64,000 bases of DNA, from assembly GCF_026914265.1 (NCBI RefSeq), contig NC_069133.1:7943937-8007936 (forward strand). The letters are read 5' to 3'. Source of the DNA: Mya arenaria (lineage: Eukaryota; Mollusca; Bivalvia; Myida; Myidae). The position numbers and the translations under genes are program-made. How positions within the stretch are numbered: the stretch's first letter is position 1; each line of letters starts with the position of its first letter. Positions 8,046 through 64,000 of this stretch are shown in pieces. The notes under the pieces were generated by a model, which was given only the letters and a program-made list of their open reading frames with translations, was not told where the DNA came from and made no database searches.

Positions 8046-9491
8046 AACAAGAGCTGTCACAGAGACAGCGCGCTCGACTATTCCGCCGCTTTTCAATGGA
8101 TTGAAACGTTTTGGCGAAACATGCATGGATCACTGTTAGATCAGATTTCAATGCAATACATGGTTTGCTGAGATATTAACATAAATGTGGTTCCATGCAA
8201 AATTTTAACGAGAATTTCTAAGTCTAATAATAAAGGGCCATTATTTGCAAAATACAGTTATCTAACTTTAAGTTGGGTGGTTGAATACCATTGTATACAG
8301 TCTCAATGCAATACATCAAATAGTTGCTGAGATATTATCCTATGTGTGCTATCATGCAAGACCTTAACCTGAATTTCTAAGTCGCATAATAAAGGGGAAA
8401 TTTTATAGAGTTACCTTACTTGATTAAATAAGGTTAAATAGATGGCAGCCTGTGTGTAAAGTTTCAATGCAATACATGATGTATTCGCTGAGGTATTGAC
8501 TTAAAAGTGGTTACATGCAAAACCGTAACCAGAATTTCTATAACCGTAACCAGAATTTCTATGTCGAATAAAAAAGGGGCCATTTTTTTAATTTAATGCA
8601 AACTGGAATTATGTTACTTGGATATTTAAGTAGATTTGATGGTTGAGTACCATTGTATTAAGTCTTAATGCAATCCATCAAGTAATTGCTGAGATATTAA
8701 CCTATGTGTGCTTACATGCAAAACCTTAACCAGAATGTCTAAGTCAAATAATAAAGGCCCATAATTTGCATTATATTCAAAAAAGTGTTATCTGAGAATA
8801 CATATCTAATGTTTCAATGCAATACATGATATATTTGCTGAGATATTGACTTAAATGTGGTTACATGCAAAATCTTAACCAGAATTTCTAAGTCGATAAT
8901 AAAGGGCAATTATTTTGCATTAAATGCAAACTAGAGTTATCTAACTTGGTTAATTAAGTAGGTTGGATGGTTTACTACCATTGTATAAAGTCTCAATGCA
9001 ATACCTCAAGTAGTTGCTGAGATATTAACCTATGTGTGCTTACACGCAAAACCTTAACCAGAATTTCTAAGTCAAATAATAAAGGGCAATTATTTGCATC
9101 AAATGCAAACTAGAGTTATCTAACTTGGTTAATTTATTAAGTTGGATGGTTGAGTACCATTGTATCAAGTATCAATGCAATACCTCAAGTAGTTGCTGAG
9201 ATATTAACCTATGTGTGCTTACACGCAAAACCTTAACCAGAATTTCTAAGTCGAATAATAAAGGCCTATTATTTGCATTATATTCAAATAATTGTTATCT
9301 AACTTCATTAATTTAGTATCTTAGATAGTTGGGAATACATACCCAAAGTTTCAATGCAATAACTGATGTATTTACTGAGATAATGACTTAAAGGTGCTTA
9401 CATGCAAAACCTTAACCAAGGTGTGACGCCAACGCCGACGCCAGGGTGAGTAGTATAGCTCTCCTTATTCTTCGAATAGTCGAGCTAAAAA
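8046..9491 (+). mobile_element. Tandem-repeat-cored non-autonomous element, 179-bp family
   Basis: The head AACAAGAGCTGTCACAG contains a perfect hairpin (GCTGTC-ACAGA-GACAGC). GCTCGACTATTC follows and is repeated inverted at the 3' end (GAATAGTCGAGC), where it forms part of a terminal hairpin before TAAAAA. The core holds about seven ~179-bp units (TTAACCAGAATTTCTAAGTC, TTGCTGAGATATTAACCTAT). A ~20-bp slip duplication sits near 8520-8560. There is no coding part. A reverse copy of the same family is at 21222-24111. Confidence 0.75.
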
Positions 9492-20165: not shown

Positions 20166-20270
20166 ATGCTGACTGCAAGAAGTACATTTGCAAAACTCGG
20201 CAATATAATGAGTGGACAAGCAAAGATTTCTACATTTTTTACGTCGAAAGGAAAAAATAATCTCGAAAAG
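20166..20270 (+). CDS. UNG: UNG exon 1: PCNA-binding box, two possible starts
   Basis: The frame is open from a TAG at 20079. The first ATG is at 20166 and the second at 20208, directly before [10 protein letters not shown], which fits the human UNG2 start (Met-Ile-Gly-Gln) and its QxxIxxFF box. The exon ends GAAAAG|GTTTGT in phase 0, matching exon 2. The 14-residue extension ([14 protein letters not shown]) has Arg and Lys but no acid, a pattern seen in mitochondrial leaders. Confidence 0.85.
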
Positions 20271-23200
20271 GTTTGTTCATTTCAATATTCTACTATGATT
20301 TATATACGCAATGTTTGTAGGCTCTCTACACATAAGCGATTCGTAGCCAGTTCGTTCGTACCAGCAATCCATTTAATGAATAACTAAGGAAGTTCAGCTT
20401 CGTATTATTAAATCTGACCAACCTACTGGATGATAGTAAACTTATAACGAAAGTCTTCCCAAGCTAGTTGTAGACTGCAAGGCCTGCAGACTTTTATAAC
20501 TATATCCCAGAACATTTTTCACTTTTGATGAATTTAATTTTTAAACAGGCATAAAAACTCTAGCGCTGTAAGAACTGTGGTGGTCAACGACCTAATTTAT
20601 TAGTACTTTTATTTCATTTACCTATTCTCAAATCTGCTACAATAGCTACATACTGCTTTCTGCGTATCCAGGGTTAAACACTAACATTTTTTACAAGGTA
20701 GTCCCTCGGACTACTGGATCTGAAATCTGGGTAGTCCAGCAAAAATTCTGGTAGTCCAAAAAAATGCATGCCTGCAATGGATTCCTTCAGTGTTTTGTGA
20801 GACTTAGCCTTCTCCTTAGAACACTGTCAGTATAACACTTTGATTGGTCATGTTTTTAATCTACAGGTCTCAATCTTAAATTTTTCACATTCTTTAAATC
20901 AATTTTTTTTTGCCTTTAAATTTAATTTTAAAACCTAAAAAATGCTAAAAACCATGCTAAAATACCTCAGATTAAAACTCTAAAAACCATGCTAAAATAC
21001 CCCATAATCTGTCAATTTCAGGAAAATATTGCAATTAATCACACTAAAACACCTTGACCAAGATTGTTGCTAAGTTATGGCACAAATGACAGACATCCTA
21101 CTGATAAGCAATATTTGATTATTGGCATCCTACTATTCAGTATTTTTTGTTTATCTAAACGACTTATCATATAATGCTTAAAAAAACATGATAAAATAAA
21201 TTCCGAAAGTATCATTAATTATTTTTAGCTCGACTATTCGAAGAATATGGAGAGCTATACTACTCACCCAAGCGTCGGCGTCGGCCTCACCCCTTGATTA
21301 AGGTTTTGCGTGCAAGCACACATAAGATAATATCTCAGCAACTACTTGAGGTATTGCATTGAGACTTTATACAATGGTACTCAACCATCCAACCTACTTA
21401 ATTAACCCTTTAGCGCATGTATACGAGATAGGCCGACATAGCTCATTAGCAGATGTATACGCATTTGGCCGACCGTATCCATTACTGGATGTAAACGCAT
21501 GGCCCGCATATTTCAATAGGGTCATTTCAATATTTCAATTTTGCATCTTTCTTTTTGTAAACAATATCCCGAATGTTTATAAAATTAAAGTTTAACCTTT
21601 TGAGTATTGATTTTCCCTTGAAAATATCGTCTGCTAAATTGAGAAGGTGTTTATACTCCCAATCGCAGGTGTGATATCCCATTGTGACGTAATAAGACCA
21701 CGAGCTAAGTACTGTATGGAATTTCCCCCAAATTCATTGATGCGTAAATCATTAAATATATTACGTCAGTTCATTTTACCATTAAAATCAATTGAGATTA
21801 TATTTACTTAAAGGTAATATTTTGTTTACAAACAAAAGAAACAATTAGTAAATGAGAAAATGATGGGTAAATTTTCTGTGAAGCTTATATAATGTCCATC
21901 ATAGTTTTGGCTGTAAAATAGGTCATGTGCAAGCGTTTTGTTTGATCTAGATCTTTTTATTCATACCGGAAAATCATTTATCGGCTTTCTTTTTTGTAAA
22001 CAATTTTATGAGGGGGTAATAAAGTTAAACAGACACCTTGGACTGGATCTCTCAGCTGGATGACACCGGATATTCCTGACATATTTCTGTGTATTAATAC
22101 ACAAGAACATAAATTGTCGGCTTTTTAATCCAGATGGGTCTTTTTTATGATGGGGGTAATAAAAATTGATCGATCCCAGCATTTTATTACCCTTTGATTT
22201 AATGCAATTATGACATTTCAAAGAAATGTTACAATTCCATCTTGAAAATACATTCACTGCTGAAATAAAATAATTTAATATTTCATTGTTGACACCATTT
22301 ATTAGATAATTTAATTATCTATAAAAAATGTATTCACATAAAAAAGATTTGGACACAATTATTTGGAGTAACATTGATTTTAAGGTCATACTGCTGTATT
22401 CATTTTTCAAGATTATTAAAGTTATCGCATTATCGAGTAGTCTCCCTTCTCTTATGTCGTGGCTTTTATTTGATTGAAGACATGCAAAATGCACAAATTG
22501 GAGTTATGTTGGTTAATAAGCAATTTTGGTATAGGTTTGTCTAGAATATTACTTATATAACCGGGAGGGCAAATGTCCGCCCCATCGAAAATGGAGGGGG
22601 GGCAAATGTCCGCCCCCTCGAACATTGAGGGGGGGCAAATGTCCGCCATGGTCCAAAAGGGGGGCAAATGTCCGGGGGGGCAAATGTCCGTATACCTTTT
22701 CAAATATCCAGAAAAGTACCTATACAGATAAGGACTGCTTATCAGTAAGATGGCTATTGACTGGGAGGTGTTATCTGGCCACTTGTCTATGTGCTAAAGG
22801 GTTAACCAAGTTTGATAACTCTCCTTTGCATTTAATGCCAATAATAGGCCTTTATTATTTGACTTAGAAATTCTGGTTCTGGTTTTGCGTGCAAGCACAC
22901 ATAGGTTAATATCTCAGCAACTACTTGAGGAATTGCATTGAGACTTGATACAATGGTACTTGACCATCCAACCTACTCAATTAACCAAGTTAGATAACTC
23001 TAGTTTGCATTTAATGCAAATAATAGGCCTTTATTATTTGACTTAGAAATTCTGGTTAAGGTTTTGCGTGCAAGCACACATAGGTTAATATCTCAGCAAT
23101 GAGTTGAGGTATTGCATTGAGACTTGATACAATGGTACCAAACATCCAACCTACTTAATTATCCAAGTTAGATAACTCTACTTTGCATTTAATGCAAATA

Positions 23201-26200
23201 ACAGGCCTTTATTATTCGACTTAGAAATTCTGGTTAAGGTTTTGCGTGCAAGCACACATAGGCTAATATCTCAGCAACTACTTGATGTATTGCATTGAGA
23301 CTTGATACATTGGTACTCAACCATCCAACCTACTTAATTAACCAAGTTAGATAACTCTAGTTTGCATTTAATTCAAATTGTAGGCCTTTATTATTCGACT
23401 TAGAAATTCTGGTTAAGGTTTTGCGTGCAAGCACACATAGGTTAATATCTCAGCAACTACTTGTGGTATTGCATTGAGACTTGATACAATGGTACTCAAC
23501 CATCCAACCTAATTAATTAACCAAGTTAGATAATATACTGTGCATTTAATGCAAATAATTGCCCTTCATTATTCGACTTAGAAATTCTGGTTAAGGTTTT
23601 GTGTGCAAGCACACATTATTTTAATATCAAAGCAACTACTTGATGTATTGCATTGAGACTCGATACAATGGTACTCAACCATCCAACCTACTTAATTAAC
23701 CATGTAAGGTAACTCTAGTTTCATTTAATGCAAATAATTGCCCTTTATTATTTGACATAGAAATTCTGGTTAAGGTTTTGCGTGTAAGCACACAATAGGT
23801 TAATTTCTAAGAAACTACTCGGATGTATTGAATTGAGACTTTATAGAATGGTATTCAACCACTCAACGTAATTGAATAACCAAGATATATATAACTGTAT
23901 TTTGCAAATAATTGCCCTTTATTATTAGACTTAAAAAATCTGGTTGAAATTTTCCATGTAACCACATTTATGTTACTATCTCAGCACATCATGAATTGCA
24001 TTGAAATCTAATCTAACAGTGATCCATGCATGTTTGGCCAAAACTTTTCAATCCTTACACTGAAAAGCGGCGGAATAGTCGAGCGCGCTGTCTCTGTGAC
24101 AGCTCTTGTTTATATGGGAGTAAGATTACAATTAACATGACGCTGCCTGTCAGTCAAACTAGCTGATCAATACCCGACTGACCAATCAGCGTCCAGATAA
24201 GGCAGGGCTTATCAGTTGCCGTTGCTATCTGCCATGACCTCCGACAATCCTCACATATCAACAGTAGTGTAATTACGCTGTTATATATATTTAACACAAA
24301 TTATGTCTCATAATTGAGAGATAGTAAAGACAGTTAAAGAAATCAGAAATACTGACATTTTCCCTTAATGCTGCTAAAATTATAATTGATAACAAGGGAC
24401 TGTTTAGTAGACTAATTCAATTCTCAAAATGTCTTAATGTAACCGTACATAATATACATATATTTCCATTTTAATTGCCTTAAAATAAGAAATATCATGA
24501 TGTGAACTAGTGTACAATATTGATGATATCTTGCGATTTATTTTGAAATTTGTCTCATTATTGTGCAAAAAGTTTTAAATCCGAAGCATATATACATTTG
24601 CTTTTAAGTTTGTTTGACATATTAGTGAAAAAGACACCTCAGTTTATGTGAGTTACATTTTTTATTAAATTTAATTAAATATCTGATTTATAACTTAAGG
24701 TCACAAAAAGTATATACATATAGATAAAACAAAATCATTGTTTTTAAATGACGCAAATCAAAGTAAAGACCTTTGCATTTATAATGACTATGGTCGTTTC
24801 AAAATTTCTATGCTGATTGTTAGAACAGTTTTGCATTTCATTTAATACGGAAATTAGTTCATTGAGAGAAACAATAAGGTAGTTATATCAATAATGATAA
24901 TAATGCATTACACTTGTATAAAACAGGTGATACTGAATCGAAAAAGGAAGAAAAACAGATAAATCCATTGAGTATTGACAATGGATCTATACAAACATCT
25001 TTTTTGTTGATTTTCATGTTTTGTTTCCCTTTATTTGAGTTTTAAAATAGAGACTGTTATTGTACTGTAACAAAATTCTGATGTTATTTAGAAATATATT
25101 AGTCTAGACATTTTTCTACCTGAATTATACATTGCATACAATTAATAATGATGAACTTATTTAATGTTATACTTGCTTTAAATGCTATGTTTTACTATGT
25201 TCCATGCATTTTTATGCCCCCGAAGGTGGGCATATTAAAATCGCACCGTCCGTCCGCCTTTGTGTCCGGCTCAGTAACTGGTGTCCGGGCTGTAACTTTC
25301 CCTTGTATGGACAGATTTTAAAACAAGACCCGTGTCCCTACCTCTTAGGTCAAGGTCACACTTAGTGTTTATTCACAATGGAATGCTGCATAAAAGGACA
25401 TACAGTATAGGTTGTCGTGTCCGGGCTGTAACTTTCCCTTGTATGGACAGAATTTAGAATAACTTGCCACATGTGTTCGACATACCAAGACGACGTGTCG
25501 CGTGCAAGAACCGTGTCCCTACCTCTAAGGTCAAGGTCACACTTAGGTGTTTATTCACAATGGAGTGCTGCATATAAGGACATAGAGTATAGGTTGTCGT
25601 GTCCGGGCTGTAACTTTCCCTTGTATTGACAGATTTTAAAATAACTTGCCACATGTGTTTGACATACCAAGACGATGTGTCGCGTGCAAGGCCCATGTCC
25701 CTTCCTCTAAGGTGAAAGATACACTAAGTGTTTATTCACAATGGAATGCTGAATATAAGGACATAAGAATGTAGGTTGTCAAGAATGGGTGGTATTTTTT
25801 ATGTTCAGAAGCAATTTAAAATAACTTGCCATATGTATTTGTTTGATCTTTAACTTTTCATGTACTGACCTTGTTCATAGGTCAATGTCACATTCGGGGG
25901 CATTCGTCACATACTGTGACAGCTCTTGTTTATCTGATTGTCATTGATAACTTTTGTATTATTATCGTCTGCTTCTAGGTATTTATCGGAGGTCCCTAAT
26001 TAAGAGATCATGTGACACTGTAGGTGTAGCCTTATCGCTATCAGCATGGTGTCAATTGTTATTGGCCCTAGCTTCAATGTATAAAACGACATTTTGGCGC
26101 GAAAATTAACGCACACAATTCTGTCGTCGTCTGCACTTACACTGCATTATACCTGTTTTGGCAGTATGATCAATTTATCCGCTGCTGTTCTAAAATCCAG

Positions 26201-29200
26201 TTTAAAAGATTTCATATGCCAGACATAATGTTCCTTTGTTTGCTTTATATAAACACCGATATTTGGCAATACCCTAAACCATAATAACCAAGACGTTTTT
26301 TCAGAAAATCTAAAAATAGTAACAACCATCACTGAAAATGCAAGGAATTTAGAAATTCTGCCACTTGGACTCTCAAAGCTACCTCGCTGACATTGGCAGA
26401 GGTGCACATGTATGACGATTAAAACACACCATAGAGTGTGAAAATGGTTTTTCCCTTTCTAAATAAAGACATTCTACTGACTGGTTTAAACATTGATCGA
26501 AAGGCTACACAAAATGCGCGCGAAATTAACAGTCCACGTCCGGAACTGCTCGACCATCTTCGGCAAGCTTTACAATGAGTGTTTACCGGTGAAAATCGGC
26601 TTCTTGACATCACGTTTTACGCAAGTTTAAGTGTAATAAAGATTTTATGCTCAATAAACTGATGTGATATTTACTTTTTCTAGTAGTCCAAAGGACTATT
26701 GACTTAAAATGTCTTGTAGTCCGACCAAAAATCTGGTAGATATCAACCAAAATATTTTAAGTGAAATTATATTATTTAATTTTATCCTATAATCCGTTGG
26801 ATTTATACAATTAAAAATCAAAGTGCGTAACCAAAGCATTGAGTATAGTCAAGTGTGCGGAGATTTCTTAGTCTGTCTTAGTAATTTCAGCAAGGAGGAT
26901 TGAGCATGTTGCATATGCATTTTTAATTATTTATACACCACTAACATAAATATGTTGATTTTTTATCCACAAGTGACAGGTTGAGGGTAATAAGTAGATA
27001 AAATAGTATGTGGTTGATTCGAGCCAGAAGAATTTAGAGCTAGGATCCTGGTATTTTAAAGAAAGAACAGAAAGAAACATAAACTCAATTAACATGTCCT
27101 ATGCATTTTGTTAGATGCATACCCTGGTAATAAATTAAATACTACTCATTTTGTTGGATGCATTTAGTAAAGCAGTCATACCCTGGTAGTATATTGAATA
27201 AGCCTCAGTCATGTTTTAAGTGATACATGTGTAGATTTTACATCAAAATGCCTGAATGGTTTATCCCTTGAAGTGCATTGTTTATGAAACCAAAGTTCCA
27301 AATAAGGTTTCATATGCATCTGAGTATTACTCCATACGGTATGATACCTTAGTAATACTTTAAACGTTAAACGTTAAACATGTTTATTTGATTAAACGCC
27401 TATTTTTATACATAATATTCAATGGCGTTGTACAATACATGCATACTCTATATATCCAACATAATATTTGAACATATTTTGATATAAGACAATATAAAGC
27501 AGTTAAACAATAATATATTAAAACTTGCAACATTCATTAGATTGTAATTGACTAAAGTAGTAATATATGTACATGAATTAAAAACATAATTGGTCAAAGT
27601 AACCGATAAAAAATGAAAAATAAACAAACTCTAACACTCTAAACAATCAAATATAATATCAGACATTTCTTATCGGAGTCGGTTTTAAAACAAGTCATAA
27701 AACTGTGTGAAATAGTGAGTTTTGAGGTTTTTCTTGAACACATCTATAGACACTGACTGCTTAATATACAATGGCAGACTATTCCATAGAGTGGTCCGAT
27801 TGTGCAAAAACTTCTATCGTTAAACCTTGTTCTCTTGTTAAATGGTACATCATACTTGATACCAGGGTCACTAGCTGATCTTAATCCTTGTCTACGACTT
27901 ACACTCTCAGACAATAACTCAGTCAAATAAGCAGGAGCCCTACCAGTGCCACAGTTGAACATAACTGTCAATATCTTGAAGTTGATTCTAGCCTTTATTG
28001 GCAGCCAGTGCAGATCAAAGAGAGCTTGCTTGGCCCCGTCATAATTGCCTCGGTTAAGAACTAATTTTGCGCACATATTTTGGATGCGCTGCATTTTGGT
28101 TAACTCTATCTCAGAAATACCATACAATATAAGGTTACAGTAGTCCAAATGAGAGATAACAAGTGAAAGTAAAAGGATTTCGGTTGCATATGGTTAAATA
28201 TTTTCGTATACACTTCACCCTGAAAAAGTTCAACATTGCAGTGCGGCATTTACGCTTCACGTGTTCCTTAAAGGATAAGGTTTCGTCAAGAAAGGCACCT
28301 AAGTATCTAATGCAGCTTTCTCGGTGTACAGCATCACCAGCAATATCTATATTTGTAGTGACACATTTATTTAGTTGAGCCTTACTGCCAAACATAATGA
28401 ATTCTGTTTTGGAAGTGTTCATTTTTAGTTTGTTTGCGTTCATCCACTTGTTGATCGTAACTGCACATGTTTCTAGTTTGTGAATATTTTGCTGTTCATG
28501 TATTGGAGACGCCGGACTAAAGCATTTGTGGGCGATATGATTATCAGCGAACCCGTACACCGAAATCGACGGAGGAATGACATCAAACAGAGTACCGGCA
28601 TAGGTGAGATATAGCCAGGGACCCAAACAGCTTCCTTGGGGAATGCTACATTCTAATGGACGGGGTGATGATAGAGACGTATTAACACTAACTCTACAAT
28701 GCCGTGGTCTTAGATACGACTCTAGCCAATTTAATGCAGTACCACACATTCCATACTGATTATGAAGTACGTCTATCAAAATGGTGTGATCAACAGTATC
28801 AAAGGCAGCACTAAGATCAATAGCAATCAAGGCGGTGACTTCTTGTCTTTCCATTCCACCAAGAATATCATTAACAAGTCGCAGAAGTGCCGATTCACAA
28901 GAATGATGTCGCCTGTATGCTGACTGATGTTTTGGTAAAAGGTTTTTTGATTACATAGTTTTGATTTAATTTCATTAATTTAATTTTTGAGTATCAGCAT
29001 AAAAATTTAAAAGTATTTGTGAAGGAATTCATGAGCAAGCATACAGTGTTCTCAATAAGAACCGGCTGCCTGCCAATAGGGCCGGTTCAAATATGGAAAA
29101 CTAAATGAATTTTCAGTAGAATAAGTAGAAGCTGGTCATTTACTTCACCATTTGAGACGGTTTAACCGAAACTTATTGAGAACCCTGAGCATATACTATC

Positions 29201-32200
29201 TACAGATGTTTATGCTATTTTGTTTTAAAATAACTTCAGAAAAAAAAACCAGGCCGAAAATCCTTCAATGCTTTAAGCGCTTTGCTTATGTCATGCTGTA
29301 CTGGTATGTGGGTCTTAAGGTGAGGGTTTATGACAATGTACATACTACATTGTGCAATAGGATTAGAATTTAGAAAGTCCTCATGTATAAACAAACTATG
29401 GTAGCCTAAAGTAGAGTGTCAATAAAATGTTAAAAAAATTGTGTTGCTTTACAAAACATGTCGGTAGATTATTAAATTATGACAGAAGGTTATTGGAGCA
29501 TTATACAATGTAATTAAAAGACCACAATAATCAATATCACAGGCAGCAGTTACATTATGGTTAAGGACCTCTTACGGACGAGTGTTTTGTTAAACTCGCA
29601 ACTAACTTATTTTTCAACCAATTGTATCCAGATAACTTGCATTCATCTCAGATGATAGTGAAGTTTCAGCAAATGTACAACTTCAATACAATTTGTTAAA
29701 CAAAATGTATATTTTAAGCCCAAACTCCAACAAACTATGAAAAGGATTTGGTAGGCAATTCATATTTACCATCAGAATCTTTGTTTTCAACAAAATTTTG
29801 CTTGTTTCGTCAAATAAAACAAATGAAAGAGCATTCAAACTGAGATAGAAGAGAAGAAAAAAGATAGAAAAAAATCATAATTGCTTAAACACGGGACTGC
29901 TTGTCACCCAGATTGCGCTTTTCAGACGAAAGATGAAAACACACCTCCAAAAAAGATGCGACTTGATGCTGACTCCAGTCCTGGGAAGTTGACACCGCCT
30001 GGGGATGATAAAAAAAGTTCACCCCTAAGCCCGGAGCAAAAACAGAGGATGGCTGAGAATCGTGAGAAAGCTCTGGCCAAACTACATGCCAAGCAGCCAG
30101 CCAAGCAGCCAGCCAATCAGACGGCTCCATCTCAGACAGACACACTGCTGGTCAACGTTGGGGAATCCTGGAGAACTGCCCTGGAGGCTGAGTTCAGTAA
30201 AACTTATTTTGCAGAGGTACAACCTTACCAACTAGCTGAATCTAAGTTTAAAGAAACACACTTAATGATTTATCCTATTCAATTTAATTACTAAAATTTG
30301 CAAAAATGTTCATATTTAATGATTGATCACATTTTTTCGTGTGTTCATACTGTATAAATGCAGAAGGGCATGTGAGCAAAATCCATGAAGCGCACAATTT
30401 TGAAATAAACAATGACATCATAACCTCTTTGATGATGTGCAATATGAGTTTTCTCTATGATATAAAATTAATGACAAGGCACATGTTAATATAACGATAT
30501 ATAATTAATTAATCATACACCATGTAATATAATTATTCTTTGTTTAGTGAGCACATACATGAAGGGTCTTTTACATGTTTTCAATGTCTCAGATATCAAG
30601 AAAATGTATATCATTTCCTCATTGTAGCTCACCCGGTTTGTGTGTGCAGAGAGAAGGAAGGGCACAGTTTACCCATCTCCGGAGAATGTGTTTTCCTGGA
30701 CACGGGCCTGCCCTCTTGATCAGGTCAGAATGTCCTAGTGTTGAATAAAAAAAATTGAAATGGACAACCATAATTGATTATCAAATATGAAATAATCAAA
30801 AGTGTATATCAATTTTCAATATTGGTATCAAACTAGCATTTATGCTTATTCCAGTAACTTACATGGCTTTGTACAGAAATGATGTAACGACTTAAAAAAG
30901 GGCCGTCCACACGTCTATCTATTCGTCCGTCTGTGTGTCTGGCACAACTTCTCGTGTCCTGACTGTAACTTTCTCTTGTATGGACAGATTTTAAAATGTG
31001 TTTGGCATATAAAGACGACGTGTCACGTGCAAGATCCGTGTCCCTACCTCTAAGGTCAAGGTCACACTAAGTGTTTGTTTACTATAGAATGCTGTATAGA
31101 AGGACATAATAGTGTAGGTTGTCAAGTATGGGTGGTATTTTTTTATGGTCAGAGGCAATTTAAAATAACTTGCCGTATGTTTTAAACACAAAAACGCAAT
31201 GTCGCATTTGCAAAACCAACACTGTATTGTTGTCAAGCATAGAGGAGTTTCAATCCTATGGGACAGTTGTTTGGCACATTTAAGGCGACATGTGGTGCAT
31301 TAAGAACCCAATCTATGGTTTTACTTAGTTTCATGTTGTGACATTCTGATTCAGATGAACATTTTTGATAATGATACACTGTTAGTAAGTCATTTCAGTA
31401 TGGTTGAACTCTCTTGGTTCATTTATGATCCGATATGTACTGACATGGTTCAAAGGTCAAGAGTAATAGTTTGTTTCAGAGTAAGATCTTAATTTATTTC
31501 ATCGAGTGAGCACCAAAAGCTGTATTTCATGAGTGCCATAGAGCCCTGTCCGCCCTGTTAGCTCAGTCGGAAGAGCGTTGGACTGTGAATCGAACAACCC
31601 GGGTTCGATTACGGGGCGGACCAGGTCACTTCTGTTGTGATTGGTTATGAAATCCTTTCTACGACCATTCGCACTGTACCACTACCCCTGGCATGTACAG
31701 AAGTTGTCAGTTCCTTGCAGAGAGGAAGGCACATAGTACTGGTTAACCGCCCAGGATAGGTGTGCGGTGGTTGAACTGTCACTCTGGGACAATGTGCTCA
31801 CGCTGGGACCCCGAGTATAAACTACTAACACCACCACCTGTCCCAGCCCTGTCGGCGGTGATGTTTGATATGGAAGTGAGAGAAGACTTTTATTCCTAAA
31901 CAGTGAGAAATATGAAATTGATATTTTCACTGTTTGAAACATTAAAATTACAATTCTTTTTCACTAATTCCAGGTAGATCTATATCAACCACCAAAAGCA
32001 TGATATAAACTCAAATACTTATTTTATATTAATTTGCTGGTACTTTCAAACCATAACAGATATCAGCCATAAAATTGTTGAAAGATACCCACTTGTGTAC
32101 TAATGTCTCTTGTGTTATATTTCAGGTAAAAGTGGTTATTTTGGGACAGGATCCCTACCATGGACCAAACCAGGCACATGGTAAGATAGTTACGAAGCTT

Positions 32201-35200
32201 ACAGTATTCCTATATAAGCTTGTACAATTTCTAACTGAATTCTAGTGATGTTCCAATGAGCATTTGTAATCTAAAATTGATTGGTTGGGCCTAAAATTGG
32301 CGACAATCGATCATAATCGATCATCGATTCAACTGGCGAATTGTTTTTCTTTTTTCTTTGTTTGGTTAATTACCGCCAATTTTCTCTTTTGAGCTTGTTT
32401 ATGCATTAAGAAGTTTTAAGTTGTTATCATGAATGTAATAGCCAAAAGCAACAACAAGACTAAATATCTTCAAACATACACATAAGGTAATCATAGTAAA
32501 GGATTACAAGTCATTGTACAAGAATAAAACTACAGTTAAGGTATTGTCAAAAAACGATTGTACCAGTGATAATTGGTTACTTGAGTGTAACCGATTATCA
32601 ATAGTTAAACTGGAACCGATTCCCAACACTTCTGAATTCAATTGTGAAGATTTTATGAGCTGAGATTTATCATGCTGCAGTCTGTATCCAATTTAAGAGA
32701 CAACACTAAGTGCCCCAAATTTTGGTTTATTCATGACCTTTTGGGCAAAGGTTGGACTTCTCAACAACCTTGTATGTAAATGTGTAAGCATAGATCATGT
32801 TTATGGTAGATAAAATTGGACATAATTGCACAATAAGTCAAAGCATTTAAATGAAAATATGGCAAATACTAAGCACATAATTGCACAATAAGTCAAACCA
32901 TTCAAATGAAAATATGGCAAATAGCTGCTTAGTATTATATTAATAGTATAGTTTAACTGCACATGTTCAGTAAGTGAAAATAGTCATGAAGATACATTAT
33001 TAGGTATGTTTATTTTTTTTACCAAAATATCATCAACCATTCTGTTATGTTACATGGGAACAGATTACAAAATATACATACATTTCAGGCCTGTCATTCA
33101 GTGTACTGCCGGGTGTTCCCGCTCCGCCAAGGTATGTTGAGAATAAGTGTGAATAAGACCATTTTTTTAAATAAATATTATTTGCAATTTGGCCTTTTGA
33201 CACTGCCATAACACTCTCTCCAAAAAAAAACTTATACACACCATGTAGGACCCTGCTTTGCAACTATGCTGTGTCCTGCTATGCCACTTTCTGCCCTGCC
33301 CTGCCTAGTTTCTTTTAACCCTTCCCTGCCATACCATACCGGGTCCAACACCATTCTGTATCATTTCCTACCCAGCTGAGACTCATTACAACACCAATCT
33401 GTATCATGTCCTATCCTGCTGTGACTCATTACAAGACCAATCTGTATCATGTTATATCCTGCTGTTACTCATTACAACACCATTCTGTATCAAGTCCTAC
33501 CCTGCTGTACCTCATTACAAGACCATTCTGTATCATGTCATATCCTGCTGAGACTCATAACCCCACCATTCTGTATCATGTCCTACCCTGCTGTACCTCA
33601 TTACAAGACCATTCTGTATCATGTTATATCCTGCTGTGCCACATTATAACAACATTCTGTATCATGTCCTTTCCTGCTGTAACGCATTACAAGACCATTC
33701 TGTATCATGTCATATCCTGCTGTGACTCATTACAAGACCATTCTGTATCATGTCCTACCCTCCTGTGCCTCATTACAACATCATTCTGTATCATGTCCTA
33801 CCCTGCTGTACCTCATTACAACACCATTCTGTATCATGTCATGTCCTGCTGTACCTCATTACAACACCAATCTGTATCATTTCCTACCCTGCTGTGACTC
33901 ATTACAACACCAATCTGTATCATTTCCTACCCTGCTGTACCTCATTACAACACCAATCTGTATCATGTCATATCCTGCTGTAACTCATTACAACACCAAT
34001 CTGTATCATTTCCTACCCTACTGTACCTCATTATAACACCATTCTGTATCATTTCCTACCCTGATGTAACTCATTACAACACCATTCTGTATCATTTCCT
34101 ACCCTAATGTACCTCATTACAACACCATTCTGTATCATTTCCTACCCTGATGTAACTCATTACAACACCATTCTGTATCATGTCATATCCTGCTGTACCT
34201 CATTACAACACCATTCTGTATCATTTCCTACCCTGATATAACTCATTAAAACACCATTCTGTATCATTTCCTACCCTAATGTACCTCATTACAACACCAA
34301 TCTGTATCATTTCCTACCCTAATGTACCTCATTACAACACCATTCTGTATCATTTCCTACCCTAATGTACCTCATTACAACACCATTCTGTATCATTTCC
34401 TACCCTGATGTAACTCATTACAACACCATTCTGTATCATGGCCTACCCTGCTGTACCTCATTACAACACCAATCTGTATCATGTCATATCCTGCTGTAAC
34501 TCATTACAACACCAATCTGTATCATTTCCTACCCTGCTGTACCTCATTACAACACCAATCTGTATCATTTCCTACCCTAATGTACCTCATTACAACACCA
34601 TTCTGTATCATTTCCTACACTGATGTAACTCATTTCAACACCATTCTGTATCATGTCCTACCCTGCTGTGACTTATTACAAGACCAATCTGTATCATGGC
34701 CTACCCTGCAGTAACGCATTACAAGACCATTCTGTATCATGTCATATCCTGCTGTGACTCATTACAAGACCATTCTGTATCATGTCCTACCCTCCTGTGC
34801 CTCATTACAACATCATTCTGTATCATGTCCTACCCTGCTGTACCTCATTACAACACCATTCTGTATCATGTCATGTCCTGCTGTACCTCATTACAACACC
34901 ATTCTGTATCATTTCCTACCCTGCTGTGACTCATTACAACACCAATCTGTATCATTTCCTACCCTGCTGTACCTCATTACAACACCAATCTGTATCATGT
35001 CATATCCTGCTGTAACTCATTACAACACCATTCTGTATCATTTTCTACCCTGCTGTACCTCATTACAACACCATTCTGTATCATTTCCTACCCTGATGTA
35101 ACTCATTACAACACCATTCTGTATCATGTCATATCCTGCTGTACCTCATTACAACACCATTCTGTATCATTTCCTACCCTGATGTAACTCATTAAAACAC

Positions 35201-38200
35201 CATTCTGTATCATTTCCTACCCTAATGTACCTCATTACAACACCAATCTGTATCATTTCCTACCCTAATGTACCTCATTACAACACCATTCTGTATCATT
35301 TCCTACCCTAATGTAACTCATTACAACACCATTCTGTACCATTTCCTACCCTGATGTAACTCATTACAACACCATTCTGTATCATGTCCTATCCTGCTGT
35401 GACTCATTACAACACCATTCTGTATCATTTCCTACCCTAATGTAACTCATTACAACACCATTCTGTATCATGGCCTACCCTGCTGTACCTCATTACAACA
35501 CCAATCTGTATCATGTCATATCCTGCTGTAACTCATTACAACACCAATCTGTATCGTTTCCTACCCTGCTGTACCTCATTACAACACCAATCTGTATCGT
35601 TTCCTACCCTAATGTACCTCATTACAACACCATTCTGTATCATTTCCTACACTGATGTAACTCATTACAACACCATTCTGTATCATGTCCTATCCTGCTG
35701 TGACTTATTACAAGACCAATCTGTATCATGGCCTACCCTGCAGTAACGCATTACAAGACCATTCTGTATCATGTCATATCCTGCTGTGACTCATAACAAG
35801 ACCATTCTGTATCATGTCCTACCCTCCTGTGCCTCATTACAACATCATTCTGTATCGTGTCCTACCCTCCTGTGCCTCATTACAACATCATTCTGTATCG
35901 TGTCCTACCCTCCTGTGCCTCATTACAACATCATTCTGTATCGTGTTCTACCCTCCTGTACCTTATTACAACACCATTCTGTATCATGTGCCACATTTCA
36001 ACACCATTCTGTATCATGTCTTTCCCTGCTGTGACTCATTACAATACCATTCTATATCATGTCATATCCTGCTGTGACTCATTACAACACTATTCTGTAT
36101 CATGTCCTATCCTGCTGTGACTCATTACAACACCATTCTGTATCATGTCATATCCTGCTGTGACTCAATACAACACCATTCTGTATCATGTCCTATCCTG
36201 CTGTGACTCATTACAACACCATTCTGTAGCATGTCCTATCCTGCTGTGACTCATAACAACACCATTCTGTATCATGTCATATCCTACTGTGACTCATTAC
36301 AACACCATTCTGTATCATGTCATATCCTGCTGTGACTCATAACAACACCATTCTGTATCATGTCATATCCTGCTGTGACTCATTACAACACCATTCTGTA
36401 TCATGTCCTATCCTGCTGTGACTCATTACAACACCATTCTGTATCATGTCCTATCCTGCTGTGACTCATAACAACACCATTCTGTATCATGTCCTATCCT
36501 GCTGTGACTCATTACAACACCATTCTGTATCATGTCCTATCCTGCTGTGACTCATTACAACGTCATTCTGTATCATGTCCTATCCTGCTGTGACTCATTA
36601 CAACGCCATTCTGTATCATGTCCTATCCTGCTGTGACTCATTACAACGCCATTCTGTATCATGTCCTATCCTGCTGTGACTCATTACAACGCCATTCTGT
36701 ATCATGTCCTATCCTGCTGTGACTCATTACAACGCCATTCTGTATCATGTCCTATCCTGCTGTGACTCAATACAACACCATTCTGTATCATGTCCTATCC
36801 TGCTGTGACTCATAACAACACCATTCTGTATCATGTCCTATCCTGCTGTGACTCATAACAACACCATTCTGTATCATGTCCTATCCTGCTGTGACTCATA
36901 ACAACACCATTCTGTATCATGTCCTATCCTGCTGTGACTCATTACAACACCATTCTGTATCATGTCCTATCCTGCTGTGACTCATAACAACACCATTCTG
37001 TATCATGTCCTATCCTGCTGTGACTCATTACAACACCATTCTGTATCATGTCCTATCCTGCTGTGACTCATTACAACACCATTCTGTATCATGTCCTATC
37101 CTGCTGTGACTCATAACAACACCATTCTGTATCATGTCCTATCCTGCTGTGACTCATTACAACGCCATTCTGTATCATGTCCTATCCTGCTGTGACTCAT
37201 TACAACGTCATTCTGTATCATGTCCTATCCTGCTGTGACTCATTACAACACCATTCTGTATCATGTCCTATCCTGCTGTGCCACATTACAACACCATTCT
37301 GTATCATGTCCTATCCTGCTGTGACTCATTACAACACCATTCTGTATCATTTCTTTCCCTGCTGTGACTCATTACAATACCATTCTATATCATGTCATAT
37401 CCTGCTGTGACTCATTACAAAGTTATTCTGTATCATGTCCTATCCTGCTGTGACTCATTACAACGTCATTCTGTATCATGTCCTATCCTGCTGTGACTCA
37501 TTACAACACCATTCTGTATCATGTCCTATCCTGCTGTGACTCATTACAACGTCATTCTGTATCATGTCCTATCCTGCTGTGACTCATTACAACACAATTC
37601 TGTATCATGTCCTATCCTGCTGTGACTCATTACAACACCATTCTGTATCATGTCATATCCTGCTGTGACTCATAACAAGACCATTCTGCATCATGTCATA
37701 TCCTGCTGTGACTCATAACAAGACCATTCTGTATCATGTCCTATCCTGCTGTGACTCATTACAACACCATTCTGTATCATGTCATGTCCTGCTGTGACTC
37801 ATTACAACACCATTCTGTATCATGTCATGTCCTGCTGTGACTCAATACAACACCATTCTGTATTTTGTCATATCCTGCTGTACCTCATTACAACACCATT
37901 CTGTATCATGTCCTACCCTGCTGTACCTCATTTCAACACCATTCTCTATCATGTCATATCCTGCTGTAGCTCATTACAACACCATTCTGTATCATGTCAT
38001 ATCCTGCTGTACCTCATTACAACAACATTCTGTATCATGTCCTAACCTGCTGTTACTCATTACAACACCATTCTGTATCATGTCATATCCTGCTGTAGCT
38101 CGTTACAACACCATTCTGTGGCATGTCCTACCCTGCTATAAATAATTACAATACCATTCTGTATCATGGCCTACCCTGATGTACCTCATTTCAACACCAT

Positions 38201-40610
38201 TCTGTATCATGTTATATCCTGCTGTAACTCATTACAACGCCATTTTGTGTCATGTCATATCCTGCTGTAACTCTTTACAACACCATTCTGCGGCATGTCC
38301 TACCCTGCTATGAACAATTGCAACACCATTTTGTATCATGTCCTACCCTGATGTGAGTCAATACAACACTATTCTGTACCCTGCTGTACCTCATTATAAC
38401 ACCATTCTGCATCATAGCCTACCCTGATGTACCTCATTATAACACCATTCTGCATCATAGCCTACCCTGATGTACCTCATTATAACACCATTCTGCACAT
38501 AGCCTACCCTGATGTACCTCATTATAACACCATTCTGCATCATGGCCTTCCCTGAAGTACCTCATAACACCATTCTGCACATGGCCTTTCCTGATGTACC
38601 TCATTATAACACCATTCTGCATCATGGCCTACCTTGATGTACCTTATTATAACACCATTCTGCGTCATGGCCTACCCTGAAGTACCTCATTATAACACCA
38701 TTCTGCACATGGCCTACCCTGATGTACCTCGTTATAACACCATTCTGCACATGGCCTACCCTGATGTACCTCATTATAACACCATTCTGCATCATGGCCT
38801 ACCCTGATGTACCTCATTATAACACCATTCTGCATCATGGCCTACCCTGATGTACCTCATTATAACACCATTCTGCATCATGGCCTTCCCTGATGTACCT
38901 CATTATAACACCATTCTGCGTCATGGCCTACCCTGATGTACCTCATTATAACACCATTCTGCACATGGCCTTCCCTGATGTACCTCATTATAACACCATT
39001 CTGCATCATGGCCTTCCCTGAAGTACCTCATTATAACACCATTCTGCACATGGCCTTTCCTGATGTACCTCATTATAACACCATTATGTATCAACACCGT
39101 TCTGTTTGGTATCATTTCCTGCCAGTAACCCTGCTGTGAACCATTAATATTGTTTGGTATCATGTCCTACCCTGCAGTCTGGTGAACATGTACAAGGAGT
39201 TGGGGAAAGATATTGAGGGATTTAAGCGACCCGACCACGGCTACCTCCAGGGTTGGGCAAAACAAGGTAGGTTTATTGCTTAACATATTTACCCAACATT
39301 GATACCACATCAAATGCCTTTCCATTATTATGTGACCTCCGTTGCATAGAAGCCAAATACAGATCATTTTGTTCTGCATTACCTGTGTCTCTGTCGTCAT
39401 CAATTGTCAATCTTAACTAAACTTGATCGCAATGTTAAAATGCATCATATTGTACTCAATTTTGATAGCCCCAATGGATTGCAATATTTAATTACTTATG
39501 AATTATTGGCCTTGAATTAAACCTTTGCAAGAAGTAAAATTCAGCATGAAAATCACAGACAAGATGAGATCATTGAGATGTGTACATGTTTTTGGAAAGA
39601 GCTATAACAGTTGTTTTTTAATAAAACGATGCCGCGATTGCCAACTGTCAGGTGAATTCTATTTGTCTTCAGCTATTTAAAATTATGAATGATTTGTTAC
39701 TTGTCCAGGAGTGTTGATGCTAAATGCAGTGTTGACAGTGCGAGCCCGGGATGCAAACTCTCACAAAGACAGAGGCTGGGAGAAGTTGACAGACGCTGTA
39801 ATCGCGTACCTTAACAAAAACAAGGATGGGCTTGTCTTTGTTCTTTGGGGGTCGTATGCTCAGAAGAAGGGGGCGCACATTGATAAGGTAGGAAGAAATG
39901 GAATTAAAAAAATCTACATAGCTCTGGTTCATCAACAAGTGACTTTGAAATTGTATTTAGAAGGGTGCGATAACCAACAATCATCTTATATAAGAAAAAT
40001 ATAATTAACTGTTTTATGCGGATACAGTTAAGGTGTATTATGTGCTTTAAGTTGTGCACATTTACTTCATACTGTCTTTTGAATGTAATTGCCTGCATTT
40101 CAGTAGATTCAGAAATAAAAAGAGCAGAAGTTATTCAGATTGGCCATTGTGTAAAAACTAGAGTGCAGACATTTTTAGCTCATCCACTTCCTGCGAAAAA
40201 ATGTTGAGAAATTGTGATAATGGTGGCGTTGTTGTTGTTGTAGAGAAAAAGCATTCACCTTAGCCATAACTCAAAACCATTCATAACATTTAAATGCAAC
40301 TTGGTACACATGTTGCCACAGTCAATAATTATGCACTTGTACAGCAAGGCCCATAACTCTTGTTTAAAAATGTGTTCAAGTTATGCCCTTGTTTGACGCC
40401 CTTGCTGGAAATGCTTGTTTGCTTTTATTTAAACTTATGTACTGTTTATTCTAGAAAAGACACCATATCCTGAAGGGCGTGCACCCCTCCCCACTCTCTG
40501 CCCATCGGGGATTCTTCGGATGTCAACATTTTTCCAAGACTAATGAGTTTCTACAGGAAACTGGGAAACCCCCAATAGACTGGTCACACCTGCCCCGTGA
40601 TATCGAGTGA
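20166..40610 (+). CDS. UNG: Uracil-DNA glycosylase (UNG), complete eight-exon gene span
   Basis: Eight exons with matching phases give 337 residues from the first ATG, or 323 from an in-frame ATG at 20208 (human UNG2 has 313). The N-terminus carries a PCNA-binding box (QAKISTFF, residues 18-25), and residues 66-91 ([20 protein letters not shown]) match the UNG2 RPA-binding helix. The catalytic domain has the water-activating motif [13 protein letters not shown] with Asp173, the proline loop APPS (194-197), uracil-binding Asn232 in [20 protein letters not shown], and the His296 loop HPSPLS followed by [15 protein letters not shown]. The enzyme excises uracil from DNA to start base-excision repair, in nucleus and mitochondria. 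The residues before Met15 are basic and lack acids, so two starts may give two forms. Introns 1 and 5 are swollen by mobile elements and a minisatellite. A diverged partial copy lies 21 kb downstream. Confidence 0.95.
20690..20765. repeat. GTAGTCC hairpin repeat fragment
   Basis: GTAGTCC-CTC-GGACTAC is a perfect 7-bp hairpin, followed by further GTAGTCCA copies. A related fragment (TAGTCC-AAA-GGACTA) is at 26680-26740. The repeat family is not recognised. Confidence 0.5.
21406..22801. mobile_element. piggyBac-like non-autonomous element (1,396 bp)
   Basis: Its ends are CCCTTTAGCGCAT and ATGTGCTAAAGGG, a 13-bp terminal inverted repeat with one mismatch. TTAA flanks both sides (21402-21405 and 22802-22805), the target duplication of piggyBac transposases. 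Removing the element restores a continuous 179-bp unit of the host repeat. I see no transposase frame, so it depends on a partner elsewhere. It carries the G-rich repeats at 22558-22690. Confidence 0.8.
22558..22690. repeat. G-run tandem repeat (GGGGGGCAAATGTCCGCC units)
   Basis: Five copies of GGGCAAATGTCCG with runs of up to seven G between them. Several G-runs lie within 130 bases, so the plus strand could form a G-quadruplex. It sits inside the piggyBac-like element. Confidence 0.75.
24112..25207 (+). other. UNG: UNG intron 1 sequence between mobile elements
   Basis: AT-rich, with no recognised gene or repeat. Confidence 0.55.
25208..25931 (-). mobile_element. 181-bp-family tandem-repeat element, short reverse copy
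   Basis: The terminal hairpin end is at 25208-25230 (TATGCCCCCGAAGGTGGGCATA) and the head at 25900-25931 (CTGTGACAGCTCTTGTT). It has only about three ~181-bp units, against nine in the copy at 14072-15903, so core copy number varies while the ends stay fixed. Confidence 0.78.
26061..26105 (+). promoter_or_regulatory. Candidate internal promoter in UNG intron 1 (CCAAT, TATA, E2F-like)
   Basis: ATTGG lies at 26061-26065, TATAAAAC at 26080-26087, and a near-perfect E2F palindrome TTTTGGCGCGAAAA at 26092-26105. A second E2F-like site (TGCGCGCGAAATT) follows at 26515-26527. Vertebrate UNG uses two promoters for its nuclear and mitochondrial forms and responds to E2F, so an alternative UNG start is a reasonable guess. 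I could not find an exon here with a convincing in-phase donor. Confidence 0.35.
26680..26740. repeat. GTAGTCC hairpin repeat fragment, second copy
   Basis: TAGTCC-AAA-GGACTA hairpin with a further TAGTCCGACCAAAAATCTGG, which resembles 20697-20760. Confidence 0.45.
26741..27361 (+). other. UNG intron 1 sequence, nothing recognised
   Basis: AT-rich, with a short internal near-repeat (CATACCCTGGTARTAWATT near 27117 and 27177) and no gene. Confidence 0.5.
27362..28945 (-). mobile_element. 5'-truncated CR1/L2-like LINE with broken reverse transcriptase
   Basis: On the minus strand the frame reads [20 protein letters not shown], then [27 protein letters not shown] and GFADNH, followed in another frame by [19 protein letters not shown] and [10 protein letters not shown]. 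These are the fingers, palm and thumb of a non-LTR reverse transcriptase of the CR1/L2/Rex group. The palm motif reads FADN where active enzymes have Y/FADD, a frameshift near 28190 separates palm from thumb, and the endonuclease and N-terminal part are missing. The 3' end has the usual hairpin-type sequence (GCCATTGAATATT, then AATAGGCG) and a short tandem tail (ACGTTTA repeats at 27361-27378). It is dead, and lies in UNG intron 1 in opposite orientation. Confidence 0.9.
28946..29925 (+). other. UNG: End of UNG intron 1
   Basis: No recognisable element. The intron ends in the acceptor GCTTTTCAG at 29917-29925. Confidence 0.6.
29926..30216 (+). CDS. UNG: UNG exon 2: linker and RPA-binding-like helix
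   Basis: 97 codons in phase 0, ending GCAGAG|GTACAA. It holds a charged linker, [20 protein letters not shown], a Lys-Gln-Pro-Ala-type repeat (CCAAGCAGCCAG copies, likely slippage) and the start of the catalytic domain ([20 protein letters not shown]). The acceptor is set by exon 1 phase; a second AG at 29911 would break the frame. Confidence 0.9.
30628..30723 (+). CDS. UNG: UNG exon 3
   Basis: 32 codons in phase 0 ([20 protein letters not shown], then [12 protein letters not shown]), matching human FVAEERKHYTVYPPPHQVFTWTQ. Acceptor ATTGTAG, donor CAG|GTCAGA. Confidence 0.93.
30898..31460 (-). mobile_element. 181-bp-family element remnant in UNG intron 3
   Basis: It contains one clear and one decayed unit of the 181-bp family in reverse (GTCCGTCTGTGTGTCTGG, CGACGTGTCACGTGCAAGA, TAAGGTCAAGGTCACACT). 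Both ends are eroded. The matching intron of the second UNG copy lacks it, so it arrived after the duplication or was lost there. Confidence 0.6.
31552..31836 (+). mobile_element. tRNA-derived SINE in UNG intron 3, with target-site duplication
   Basis: The tRNA-like head has an A box (TTAGCTCAGTCGGAAGAGC), an anticodon-like CTGTGAA loop and a B box (GGTTCGATTAC). Stem mismatches in the anticodon and T arms rule out a working tRNA. A body of about 200 bases follows. The element is flanked by CCTGTCC at 31545-31551 and 31837-31843. The second UNG gene has an unoccupied site, CCCTGTCCCA, near 63025-63034. Confidence 0.88.
32126..32180 (+). CDS. UNG: UNG exon 4: catalytic GQDPYHG motif
   Basis: 55 bp, phase 0 in and 1 out (CACATG|GTAAGA). 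It encodes [18 protein letters not shown], with the catalytic Asp and the thymine-excluding Tyr. Confidence 0.96.
32243..32631. mobile_element. hAT-like MITE in UNG intron 4
   Basis: 389 bp starting TAGTGATGTTCC and ending CCCAACACTT, a short imperfect inverted repeat of hAT type (AGTGTTGGGAATCGG in reverse). An exact 8-bp target duplication CTGAATTC lies at 32235-32242 and 32632-32639, the length hAT transposases make. The matching intron of the second UNG copy lacks it. It is non-coding. Confidence 0.82.
33089..33131 (+). CDS. UNG: UNG exon 5: proline loop
   Basis: 43 bp, phase 1 in and 2 out (GCCAAG|GTATGT). It encodes [15 protein letters not shown], with the last codon completed by exon 6. 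The proline-serine loop compresses the DNA backbone in known UNG structures. Confidence 0.93.
33340..39177 (+). repeat. 43-bp minisatellite (about 136 units) filling UNG intron 5
   Basis: The unit is CTCATTACAACACCATTCTG followed by TATCATGTCCTATCCTGCTGTGA. Three zones differ: 33.4-35.9 kb has mixed unit types in a 1,032-bp higher-order period; 36.0-37.8 kb is nearly uniform; 38.4-39.1 kb has a subtype with TATAACACCATTCTGCATC and occasional 1-2 base losses. The last two units (39090-39177) are diverged, and the final one ends TATCATGTCCTACCCTGCAG, which is the splice acceptor of exon 6. All three frames are open over many units because 43 is not a multiple of three and the unit lacks stops in most phases; none of this is coding. 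Confidence 0.95.
33664..35830 (+). repeat. 1,032-bp higher-order repeat (24 x 43 bp)
   Basis: The variant order at 33664-34695 recurs at 34696-35727 and begins again at 35728. Marker units (TAACGCATTACAAG, CCTCCTGTGCCTCATTACAA) recur at exactly 1,032-base spacing, which is 24 units. This shows a recent block duplication inside the array. Confidence 0.88.
39178..39266 (+). CDS. UNG: UNG exon 6
   Basis: 89 bp, phase 2 in and 1 out (AAACAAG|GTAGGT). It encodes [20 protein letters not shown] and GYLQGWAKQ, which aligns with human LENIYKELSTDIEDF and LSGWAKQ. Its acceptor is the end of the minisatellite. Confidence 0.94.
39709..39887 (+). CDS. UNG: UNG exon 7: uracil-binding core
   Basis: 179 bp, phase 1 in and 0 out (GATAAG|GTAGGA). 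It encodes [20 protein letters not shown] and [19 protein letters not shown]. The Asn in MLNAVLT is the uracil-recognition residue. Confidence 0.96.
40455..40610 (+). CDS. UNG: UNG exon 8: catalytic HPSPLS loop and C-terminus
   Basis: 51 codons plus TGA after a TTTATTCTAG acceptor. It encodes [20 protein letters not shown], then [20 protein letters not shown] and a terminal [10 protein letters not shown]. The intercalation loop and catalytic His are both present. Confidence 0.96.
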
Positions 40611-63894: not shown

Positions 63895-64000
63895 GTATGT
63901 TCATGTTAAGAATCAGAACAATTTCTTGTTATAGTTTGAAAATATATAAGATTAAAAACCAATGTGTCAATGCATGTACATACATTGTACACTTCCGATT

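What the first reader, a model, noticed from the sequence alone, without database searches (positions are those of the whole stretch)
33340..39177. 43-bp minisatellite grown out of, and carrying, a 3' splice site
The real acceptor of UNG exon 6 (TATCATGTCCTACCCTGCAG) is the end of the last repeat unit. Each upstream unit carries nearly the same text, TATCATGTCCTATCCTGCTG, and a branch-point-like TGTGACTCAT. So over 130 near-acceptors, most one base from AG, precede the true one. Units at 34710-34711 and 35742-35743 do read CCCTGCAG and are complete decoys. The array likely began by duplication of the intron's own 3' end.
Basis: seen in the sequence. Interest (0 to 1): 0.75.

Follow-up and report, generated by a model that had tools for sequence, protein, structure and literature searches.

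The report
Repeat array ending at splice site
In an animal's DNA-repair gene UNG, nearly a whole intron is made of about 135 copies of a 43-base repeat, and the last, altered copy is itself the splice site needed to read the next exon.

Summary
Intron 5 of an intact animal UNG gene (33132-39177, phase 2) is filled by a 43-bp minisatellite: 135 pieces at 33346-39093, then two diverged units that end at the acceptor AG (39176-39177). The acceptor 18-mer TATCATGTCCTACCCTGC is repeat text, exact in five units and the consensus of array domain A. Homology is not detected past the AG into exon 6.

Corrections: the quoted 20-mer and TGTGACTCAT are exact in only 33 and 46 places. The two "complete decoys" (34711, 35743) are one unit copied by a 1032-bp duplication. 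Decoys at 33375 and 39125 were missed. The array's lack of AG needs no selection, because the consensus unit has none.

Most likely the last ~43 nt of the intron were duplicated and amplified as an AG-less unit, so the spliceosome uses the last, AG-bearing copy. The polarity (acceptor to array, not array to acceptor) is inferred; no relative, RNA or whole genome was available. The closest known kind is the amphioxus "mirages", tandem repeats of intron-exon boundaries. This array differs in having no recognisable exon sequence, few AGs and far more copies.

The parts
33089..33131 (+). UNG exon 5 (43 nt; donor GTATGT at 33132)
33132..39177 (+). UNG intron 5, phase 2, 6046 bp
   Evidence: junction residues colinear with known UNG
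33346..39093 (+). 43-bp minisatellite, 135 pieces including a partial first and last
33346..35990 (+). array domain A (consensus TGTACCTCATTACAACACCATTCTGTATCATGTCCTACCCTGC, mixed unit types; holds the 1032-bp block repeats)
35991..37878 (+). array domain B, most homogeneous in its middle (TGTGACTCATTACAACACCATTCTGTATCATGTCCTATCCTGC)
37879..38351 (+). array domain C (11 units counted)
38352..39093 (+). array domain D, most diverged from B (TGTACCTCATTATAACACCATTCTGCATCATGGCCTACCCTGA)
39094..39134 (+). terminal unit T2: diverged, shares TTTGG before TATCAT with T1, carries a 7-bp insertion that makes CCAG
39135..39177 (+). terminal unit T1: branch-point-like TTAAT, pyrimidine tract TATCATGTCCTACCC and acceptor TGCAG
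39178..39266 (+). UNG exon 6 (no repeat homology detected in it)
   Evidence: matrix score 4.22
34710..34711 (+). decoy acceptor AG (GGCCTACCCTGCAG)
   Evidence: score 4.23 against 5.11 for the true site
35742..35743 (+). decoy acceptor AG, copy of the one at 34710 by a 1032-bp block duplication
39124..39125 (+). decoy acceptor AG (TTTCCTGCCAG), 52 nt upstream of the true one
   Evidence: score 3.19

Best explanation
Shown: intron 5 of an intact UNG gene is about 96% minisatellite, and the final, diverged unit supplies the pyrimidine tract and AG of exon 6. Inferred: the array began as a tandem duplication of the last ~43 nt of the intron (branch-point region, pyrimidine tract, up to TGC or TGCAG), with its 3' breakpoint within about 2 nt of the intron end. 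The amplified unit carries TG in place of AG (CTGCTG), so internal copies have a branch-point-like site and pyrimidine tract but no AG. Unequal exchange or slippage then grew about 135 copies and homogenised the middle. Splicing stays accurate because AG recognition by U2AF35 and step two (established knowledge) can be met at the last unit and at only a few decoys. The terminal acceptor segment is kept identical to the repeat by purifying selection, by conversion from the array, or by both.
For: The acceptor 18-mer has 116 other matches of at least 15/18 in the window; the other six UNG acceptors have 0, 1, 0, 2, 0 and 1. Its last 19 nt before AG are identical to five of 127 units (33549, 33764, 34624, 34796, 37879) and one base off in 48 more. 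The consensus of domain A (61 units) is exactly the acceptor's 18-mer. Local alignment carries both terminal units against the unit with gaps, and profiles find them. Rightward homology is not detected past the junction: extension into exon 6 gives p 0.34-0.78 against random window 24-mers and 0.19-0.69 against shuffled exon over nine tests. The true site outscores the 36 other AGs of the intron on a recalled acceptor matrix. Each of five decoys tried gives a stop within 15 codons of the junction.
Against: No ancestral intron was seen, so polarity rests on parsimony. T1 is not clearly basal: its TTTGG insertion is shared only with T2 and could be derived. The array consensus has CTGCTG, so an early A-to-T change must be assumed; the reverse, an acceptor made from a unit by T to A, costs the same. 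The positive control of the extension test, T2 into T1, reaches only p 0.046, so decayed exon text could be missed. No RNA evidence exists for any step.
Confidence: 0.52

Rival explanations
1. The minisatellite arose elsewhere in the intron (or came in with a mobile element), grew until it reached the 3' end, and its sequence replaced the old pyrimidine tract by conversion or deletion while selection kept the AG in place. The acceptor was overwritten by the array.
For: The acceptor 19-mer is identical to units 1-6 kb away although the rest of T1 and the adjoining domain D are diverged from it, as conversion would give. The array fills nearly the whole intron. Selection alone would explain why repeat text stops at the exon.
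Against: No copy of the repeat was found elsewhere in the window (best E 0.39), and an exact 25-mer of it was not found in viral contigs or prokaryote genomes. These are weak tests, since the rest of this genome was not available. Conversion reaching exactly to the AG without touching exon 6 needs selection to trim it.
Confidence: 0.32
2. A true mirage: the founding duplication spanned the intron-exon junction, and the exon-derived half of each unit has since decayed beyond recognition.
For: By eye the unit text TGTGACTCATTACAA can be gapped against exon 6 TGGTGAACATGTACAA. Of eight local-alignment tests against shuffled exon, the lowest p were 0.004 (consensus unit, loose scoring) and 0.049 (last unit, loose). 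The known amphioxus cases span the junction. The extension test has little power for decayed text (positive control p 0.046).
Against: The same eight alignments are not unusual against random window sequence (p 0.16-0.95). Alignment anchored at the junction gives no signal in nine tests.
Confidence: 0.08
3. The array is kept because it works: ~135 pyrimidine tracts with branch-point-like sites but no AG bind U2AF/SF1 and slow or tune removal of intron 5, so that array length sets UNG level.
For: A strict yUnAy motif lies 15-50 nt upstream of the would-be AG in 115 of 126 units. Units are near-acceptors. Only 23 of 490 variant occurrences in the units create AG, though AG-creating types are 15 of 129 possible; these occurrences are not independent.
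Against: The motif test is passed by 64% of random window positions. By variant type there is no significant AG avoidance: 6 of 15 AG-creating types seen against 66 of 114 others, Fisher p 0.27. The AG deficit (30 against 155 by composition) follows from one AG-free founder unit, chance 0.24-0.31. Diverged edges and a homogeneous middle are ordinary minisatellite turnover.
Confidence: 0.07

Closest known systems
[quoted passage not shown]
   Same: Tandem repeat anchored at a splice boundary of a working gene. Units carry acceptor-like text. In BflGb6, boundary units escape the homogenisation of inner ones. Splicing is reported as not disturbed.
   Different: The amphioxus units include the intron-exon boundary and in BflGb6 number 6 and 3 in two haplotypes. 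Here no exon text is recognisable, about 135 pieces fill the intron, and nearly all lack the AG.
[quoted passage not shown]
   Same: Short repeats or duplications that copy a splice boundary; with ins68 the more distal copy of the splice site is strongly favoured.
   Different: By its coordinates the VNTR covers the donor side and exon coding sequence. ins68 is one duplication, not an array.
Potato RdRp: tandem duplication crossing an intron-exon boundary that made a new intron (PMC4974935, passages read)
   Same: Tandem duplication carrying a putative branch site, pyrimidine tract and 3' splice site.
   Different: A single duplication that includes exon sequence and created an intron. Here an existing intron was lengthened.
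Ordinary intronic minisatellites (recalled, no call)
   Same: Homogenised core, block duplications, diverged edges.
   Different: They do not usually supply the functional acceptor.

Membership tests
Minisatellite | Tandem units of roughly 10-100 bp, many copies | tested here: met
   43 bp, 135 pieces; the size range is recalled
Minisatellite | Length polymorphism between individuals | not testable with these tools
   one assembled sequence only
Mirage (tandem duplication of an intron-exon boundary) | Repeat reaches the splice boundary of the host gene | tested here: met
   T1 ends at AG 39176-39177
Mirage (tandem duplication of an intron-exon boundary) | Unit includes recognisable exon sequence next to the boundary | tested here: not met
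   anchored extension into exon 6 p 0.34-0.78 against window 24-mers and 0.19-0.69 against shuffles; positive controls p 0.046 and 0 of 1500. Decayed exon text is not excluded
Mirage (tandem duplication of an intron-exon boundary) | Many units carry duplicated AG/GT splice signals | tested here: not met
   AG at the acceptor register in 5 of 126 units (2 CAG, 3 AAG); the amphioxus paper says 'many, but not all' repeats carry AG/GT signals
Functional 3' splice site of UNG exon 6 | Reading frame and homology preserved across 33131/39178 | tested here: met
   323-aa ORF, colinear with known UNG
Functional 3' splice site of UNG exon 6 | Use in mRNA | not testable with these tools
   no RNA data
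Dispersed satellite or mobile-element repeat | Copies at other loci | tested here: inconclusive
   none in 64 kb; no genome held

The most novel reading that the evidence does not exclude
The acceptor and its own minisatellite evolve in concert: the splice site is repeatedly rewritten by conversion from the array beside it while selection keeps only the AG, and array length, with ~135 mostly AG-less branch-point/pyrimidine units competing for U2AF, tunes UNG splicing between individuals.
Probability: 0.08. Interest if true: 0.65.

Novelty: new variant of a known kind. Interest (0 to 1): 0.38.

Why it matters
It is a natural large-scale trial of 3' splice-site choice: about 135 similar branch-point and pyrimidine-tract units ahead of one true AG, with four good decoys, in a DNA-repair gene that must be spliced correctly. 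It would also extend boundary-anchored minisatellites beyond amphioxus and show how an intron can lengthen from its own 3' end.

Tried and rejected
Whole-genome search for the repeat: no genome is held. UNG copy 2 as a comparison: its exon-2, exon-4 and exon-5-like pieces lie between 61497 and 63895, but the window ends about 106 bp into its intron 5, so the acceptor side is absent. An exact 25-mer of the repeat in viral contigs and prokaryote genomes: 0 matches each, expected for an animal repeat and little evidence.

Exon text inside the unit: attractive by eye, not supported, though the test has limited power. Selection against AG: not supported by variant types; by occurrences AG variants are fewer (23 of 490 against 15 of 129 types), which copying alone could give. 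Branch-point enrichment: the strict motif test is passed by 115 of 126 units, but also by 64% of random positions, and by only 3 of the 7 real UNG acceptors. An exact branch point for T1 (TTAAT, A 30 nt upstream) is a candidate only. The best match of an 18-mer elsewhere in this repeat-rich window is itself no evidence (random 18-mers: median 14, 90th percentile 17); the number of matches is. The acceptor matrix is recalled from Shapiro and Senapathy type tables and came from no call. With it two of the seven real UNG acceptors score below 0, so its ranking is rough.

Literature: the listings of ten searches showed no paper on this array; they cover only the held open-licence library. The DOI I recalled for the original Adh3 mirage paper is not held.

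Full report
What is there. Tandem Repeats Finder and a wrap-around alignment show a 43-bp tandem array from 33346 to 39093, split into 135 pieces of which the first and last are partial. Joining eight exons (20208-20270, 29926-30216, 30628-30723, 32126-32180, 33089-33131, 39178-39266, 39709-39887, 40455 to the stop) gives an open 323-aa protein. It matches uracil-DNA glycosylase structures at E 1.8e-104 at best and Pfam UDG at E 1.4e-19. Residues across the exon 5/6 junction are colinear with the known protein, so the acceptor at 39176-39177 is right as a gene model. Intron 5 is 33132-39177, 6046 bp, and the array plus its two terminal units (33346-39177, 5832 bp) make up about 96% of it.

The acceptor is repeat text. 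Two profiles built from the units both find the acceptor unit (E 0.0007 and 2.2e-5). One of them also finds a diverged unit just before it (39109-39146, E 0.0027). The best match outside intron 5 has E 0.39. The acceptor 18-mer before AG has 116 other matches of at least 15/18 in the window; the same segments of the other six UNG acceptors have 0, 1, 0, 2, 0 and 1. Random 18-mers of this repeat-rich window have a best match elsewhere of 14 (median) to 17 (90th percentile), so the evidence is the number of matches, not the best one.

The consensus of domain A (61 units counted) is exactly this 18-mer. Domain C (11) is tied at position 38 (5 C, 5 T, 1 A), domain B (43) has T there in 42, and domain D (11) differs at three positions. 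Five of 127 units are identical to the acceptor over 19 nt and 48 more differ by one base. TGTGACTCAT (46 exact) and the quoted 20-mer (33 exact) are not in every unit.

Where homology ends. T2 and T1 align with the unit with gaps and share TTTGG before TATCAT. Past the AG, extension into exon 6 is no better than random window sequence (p 0.34-0.78) or shuffled exon (p 0.19-0.69) over nine tests with three unit forms and three scorings. With the first of these scorings the same test from T2 into T1 gives p 0.046, and from a D unit 0 of 1500. The test therefore sees a fresh copy easily and a decayed one only just. Of eight local alignments one had suggested exon text in the unit (p 0.004 against shuffles), but against real window sequence the eight give p 0.16-0.95. 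The recognisable repeat thus ends at the intron end, within the 2 nt of AG/TG.

Decoys. On a recalled acceptor matrix the true site scores 5.11, the best of 37 AGs in the intron. Next come 35743 and 34711 (4.23), 33375 (4.22), 39125 (3.19) and 33308 (3.00, upstream of the array); the other six UNG acceptors range from -0.31 to 4.70. The units at 34710 and 35742 lie in block copies 1032 bp apart: 3.7% difference over 1032 bp, against 8.9-12% at the other multiples of 43 up to 1290, and identity over 94 bp around the decoy. A third copy of the same text at 33680 is preceded by CTGCTG. They are best read as one event. Joining exon 5 to any of the five decoys brings a stop within 15 codons of the junction, so wrong choices would probably be removed by nonsense-mediated decay (inference).

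Is AG avoided? The array has 30 AG against 155 expected from base composition. Since the units are copies this is not 135 observations: the consensus unit has no AG, which 24-31% of such units would show by chance. Among single-base variant types seen in 126 units, AG-creating ones are not significantly rarer (6 of 15 against 66 of 114, Fisher p 0.27). By occurrence they are fewer (23 of 490), but copies are not independent. There is no firm evidence of selection against AG inside the array.

How it most likely works and arose. Shown: an intact gene, an array to the AG, and units mostly without AG. Established knowledge: 3' splice-site choice needs branch point, pyrimidine tract and AG, the last read by U2AF35. 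Inferred: the AG-less units are not used because they lack the AG, and the last unit is used because it has one. The founding event was most simply a tandem duplication of the intron's last ~43 nt, followed by loss of AG in the amplified copy and ordinary minisatellite growth. Turnover looks ordinary: mean mismatches to the nearest other unit are 1.8 in the first ten units, 0.3-0.4 across most of domain A, 0.0 in the middle of B (36417-37234) and 3.4 at the 3' side, where one-base deletions inflate the ungapped count. The main rival, an array that grew in the intron and overwrote the tract by conversion, cannot be excluded without relatives.

Compared with the known. Amphioxus mirages are minisatellite-like duplications of intron-exon boundaries in Adh3, globin, troponin C and PGBD5 genes, reported not to disturb splicing (PMC3087553 and PMC3902484, passages read). 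Human CBS has a 31-bp VNTR spanning an exon-intron junction and a 68-bp duplication of a junction whose distal copy is favoured (PMC2630376, passages read). Potato RdRp gained an intron by a boundary-crossing duplication (PMC4974935, passages read). The present case works like a mirage but fails two of its features: recognisable exon sequence in the unit, and AG/GT signals in many units. It is a new variant of a known kind.

Limits. One assembly, no RNA, no relatives and no rest of the genome. That this is a mollusc is my impression from repeat types and comes from no call.

Noticed in passing
61497-64000: A second, diverged UNG-like copy: exon-2-like text at 61497-61613, exon-4-like GQDPYPEPKAHG around 63379 (the first copy reads [13 protein letters not shown]), and a 43-nt exon-5-like piece at 63852-63894; it runs off the window.
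   Followed up: partly
31552-31623: A tRNA-His gene (anticodon GTG) predicted inside UNG intron 3, sense strand.
   Followed up: no
33678-35741: Block repeat of 1032 bp (24 units) inside array domain A, 3.7% different between 33678-34709 and 34710-35741.
   Followed up: yes
5702-7257, 14233-15860, 22802-23986: Other long tandem arrays with units of 145, 181 and 179 bp. By eye, the 179-bp type at 8807-9418 and 22802-23986 is in opposite orientation, and the 181-bp type recurs reversed at 25324-25780.
   Followed up: no
27744-28950: Reverse-transcriptase-like open frames on the minus strand (non-LTR element remnant by eye, from the list).
   Followed up: no
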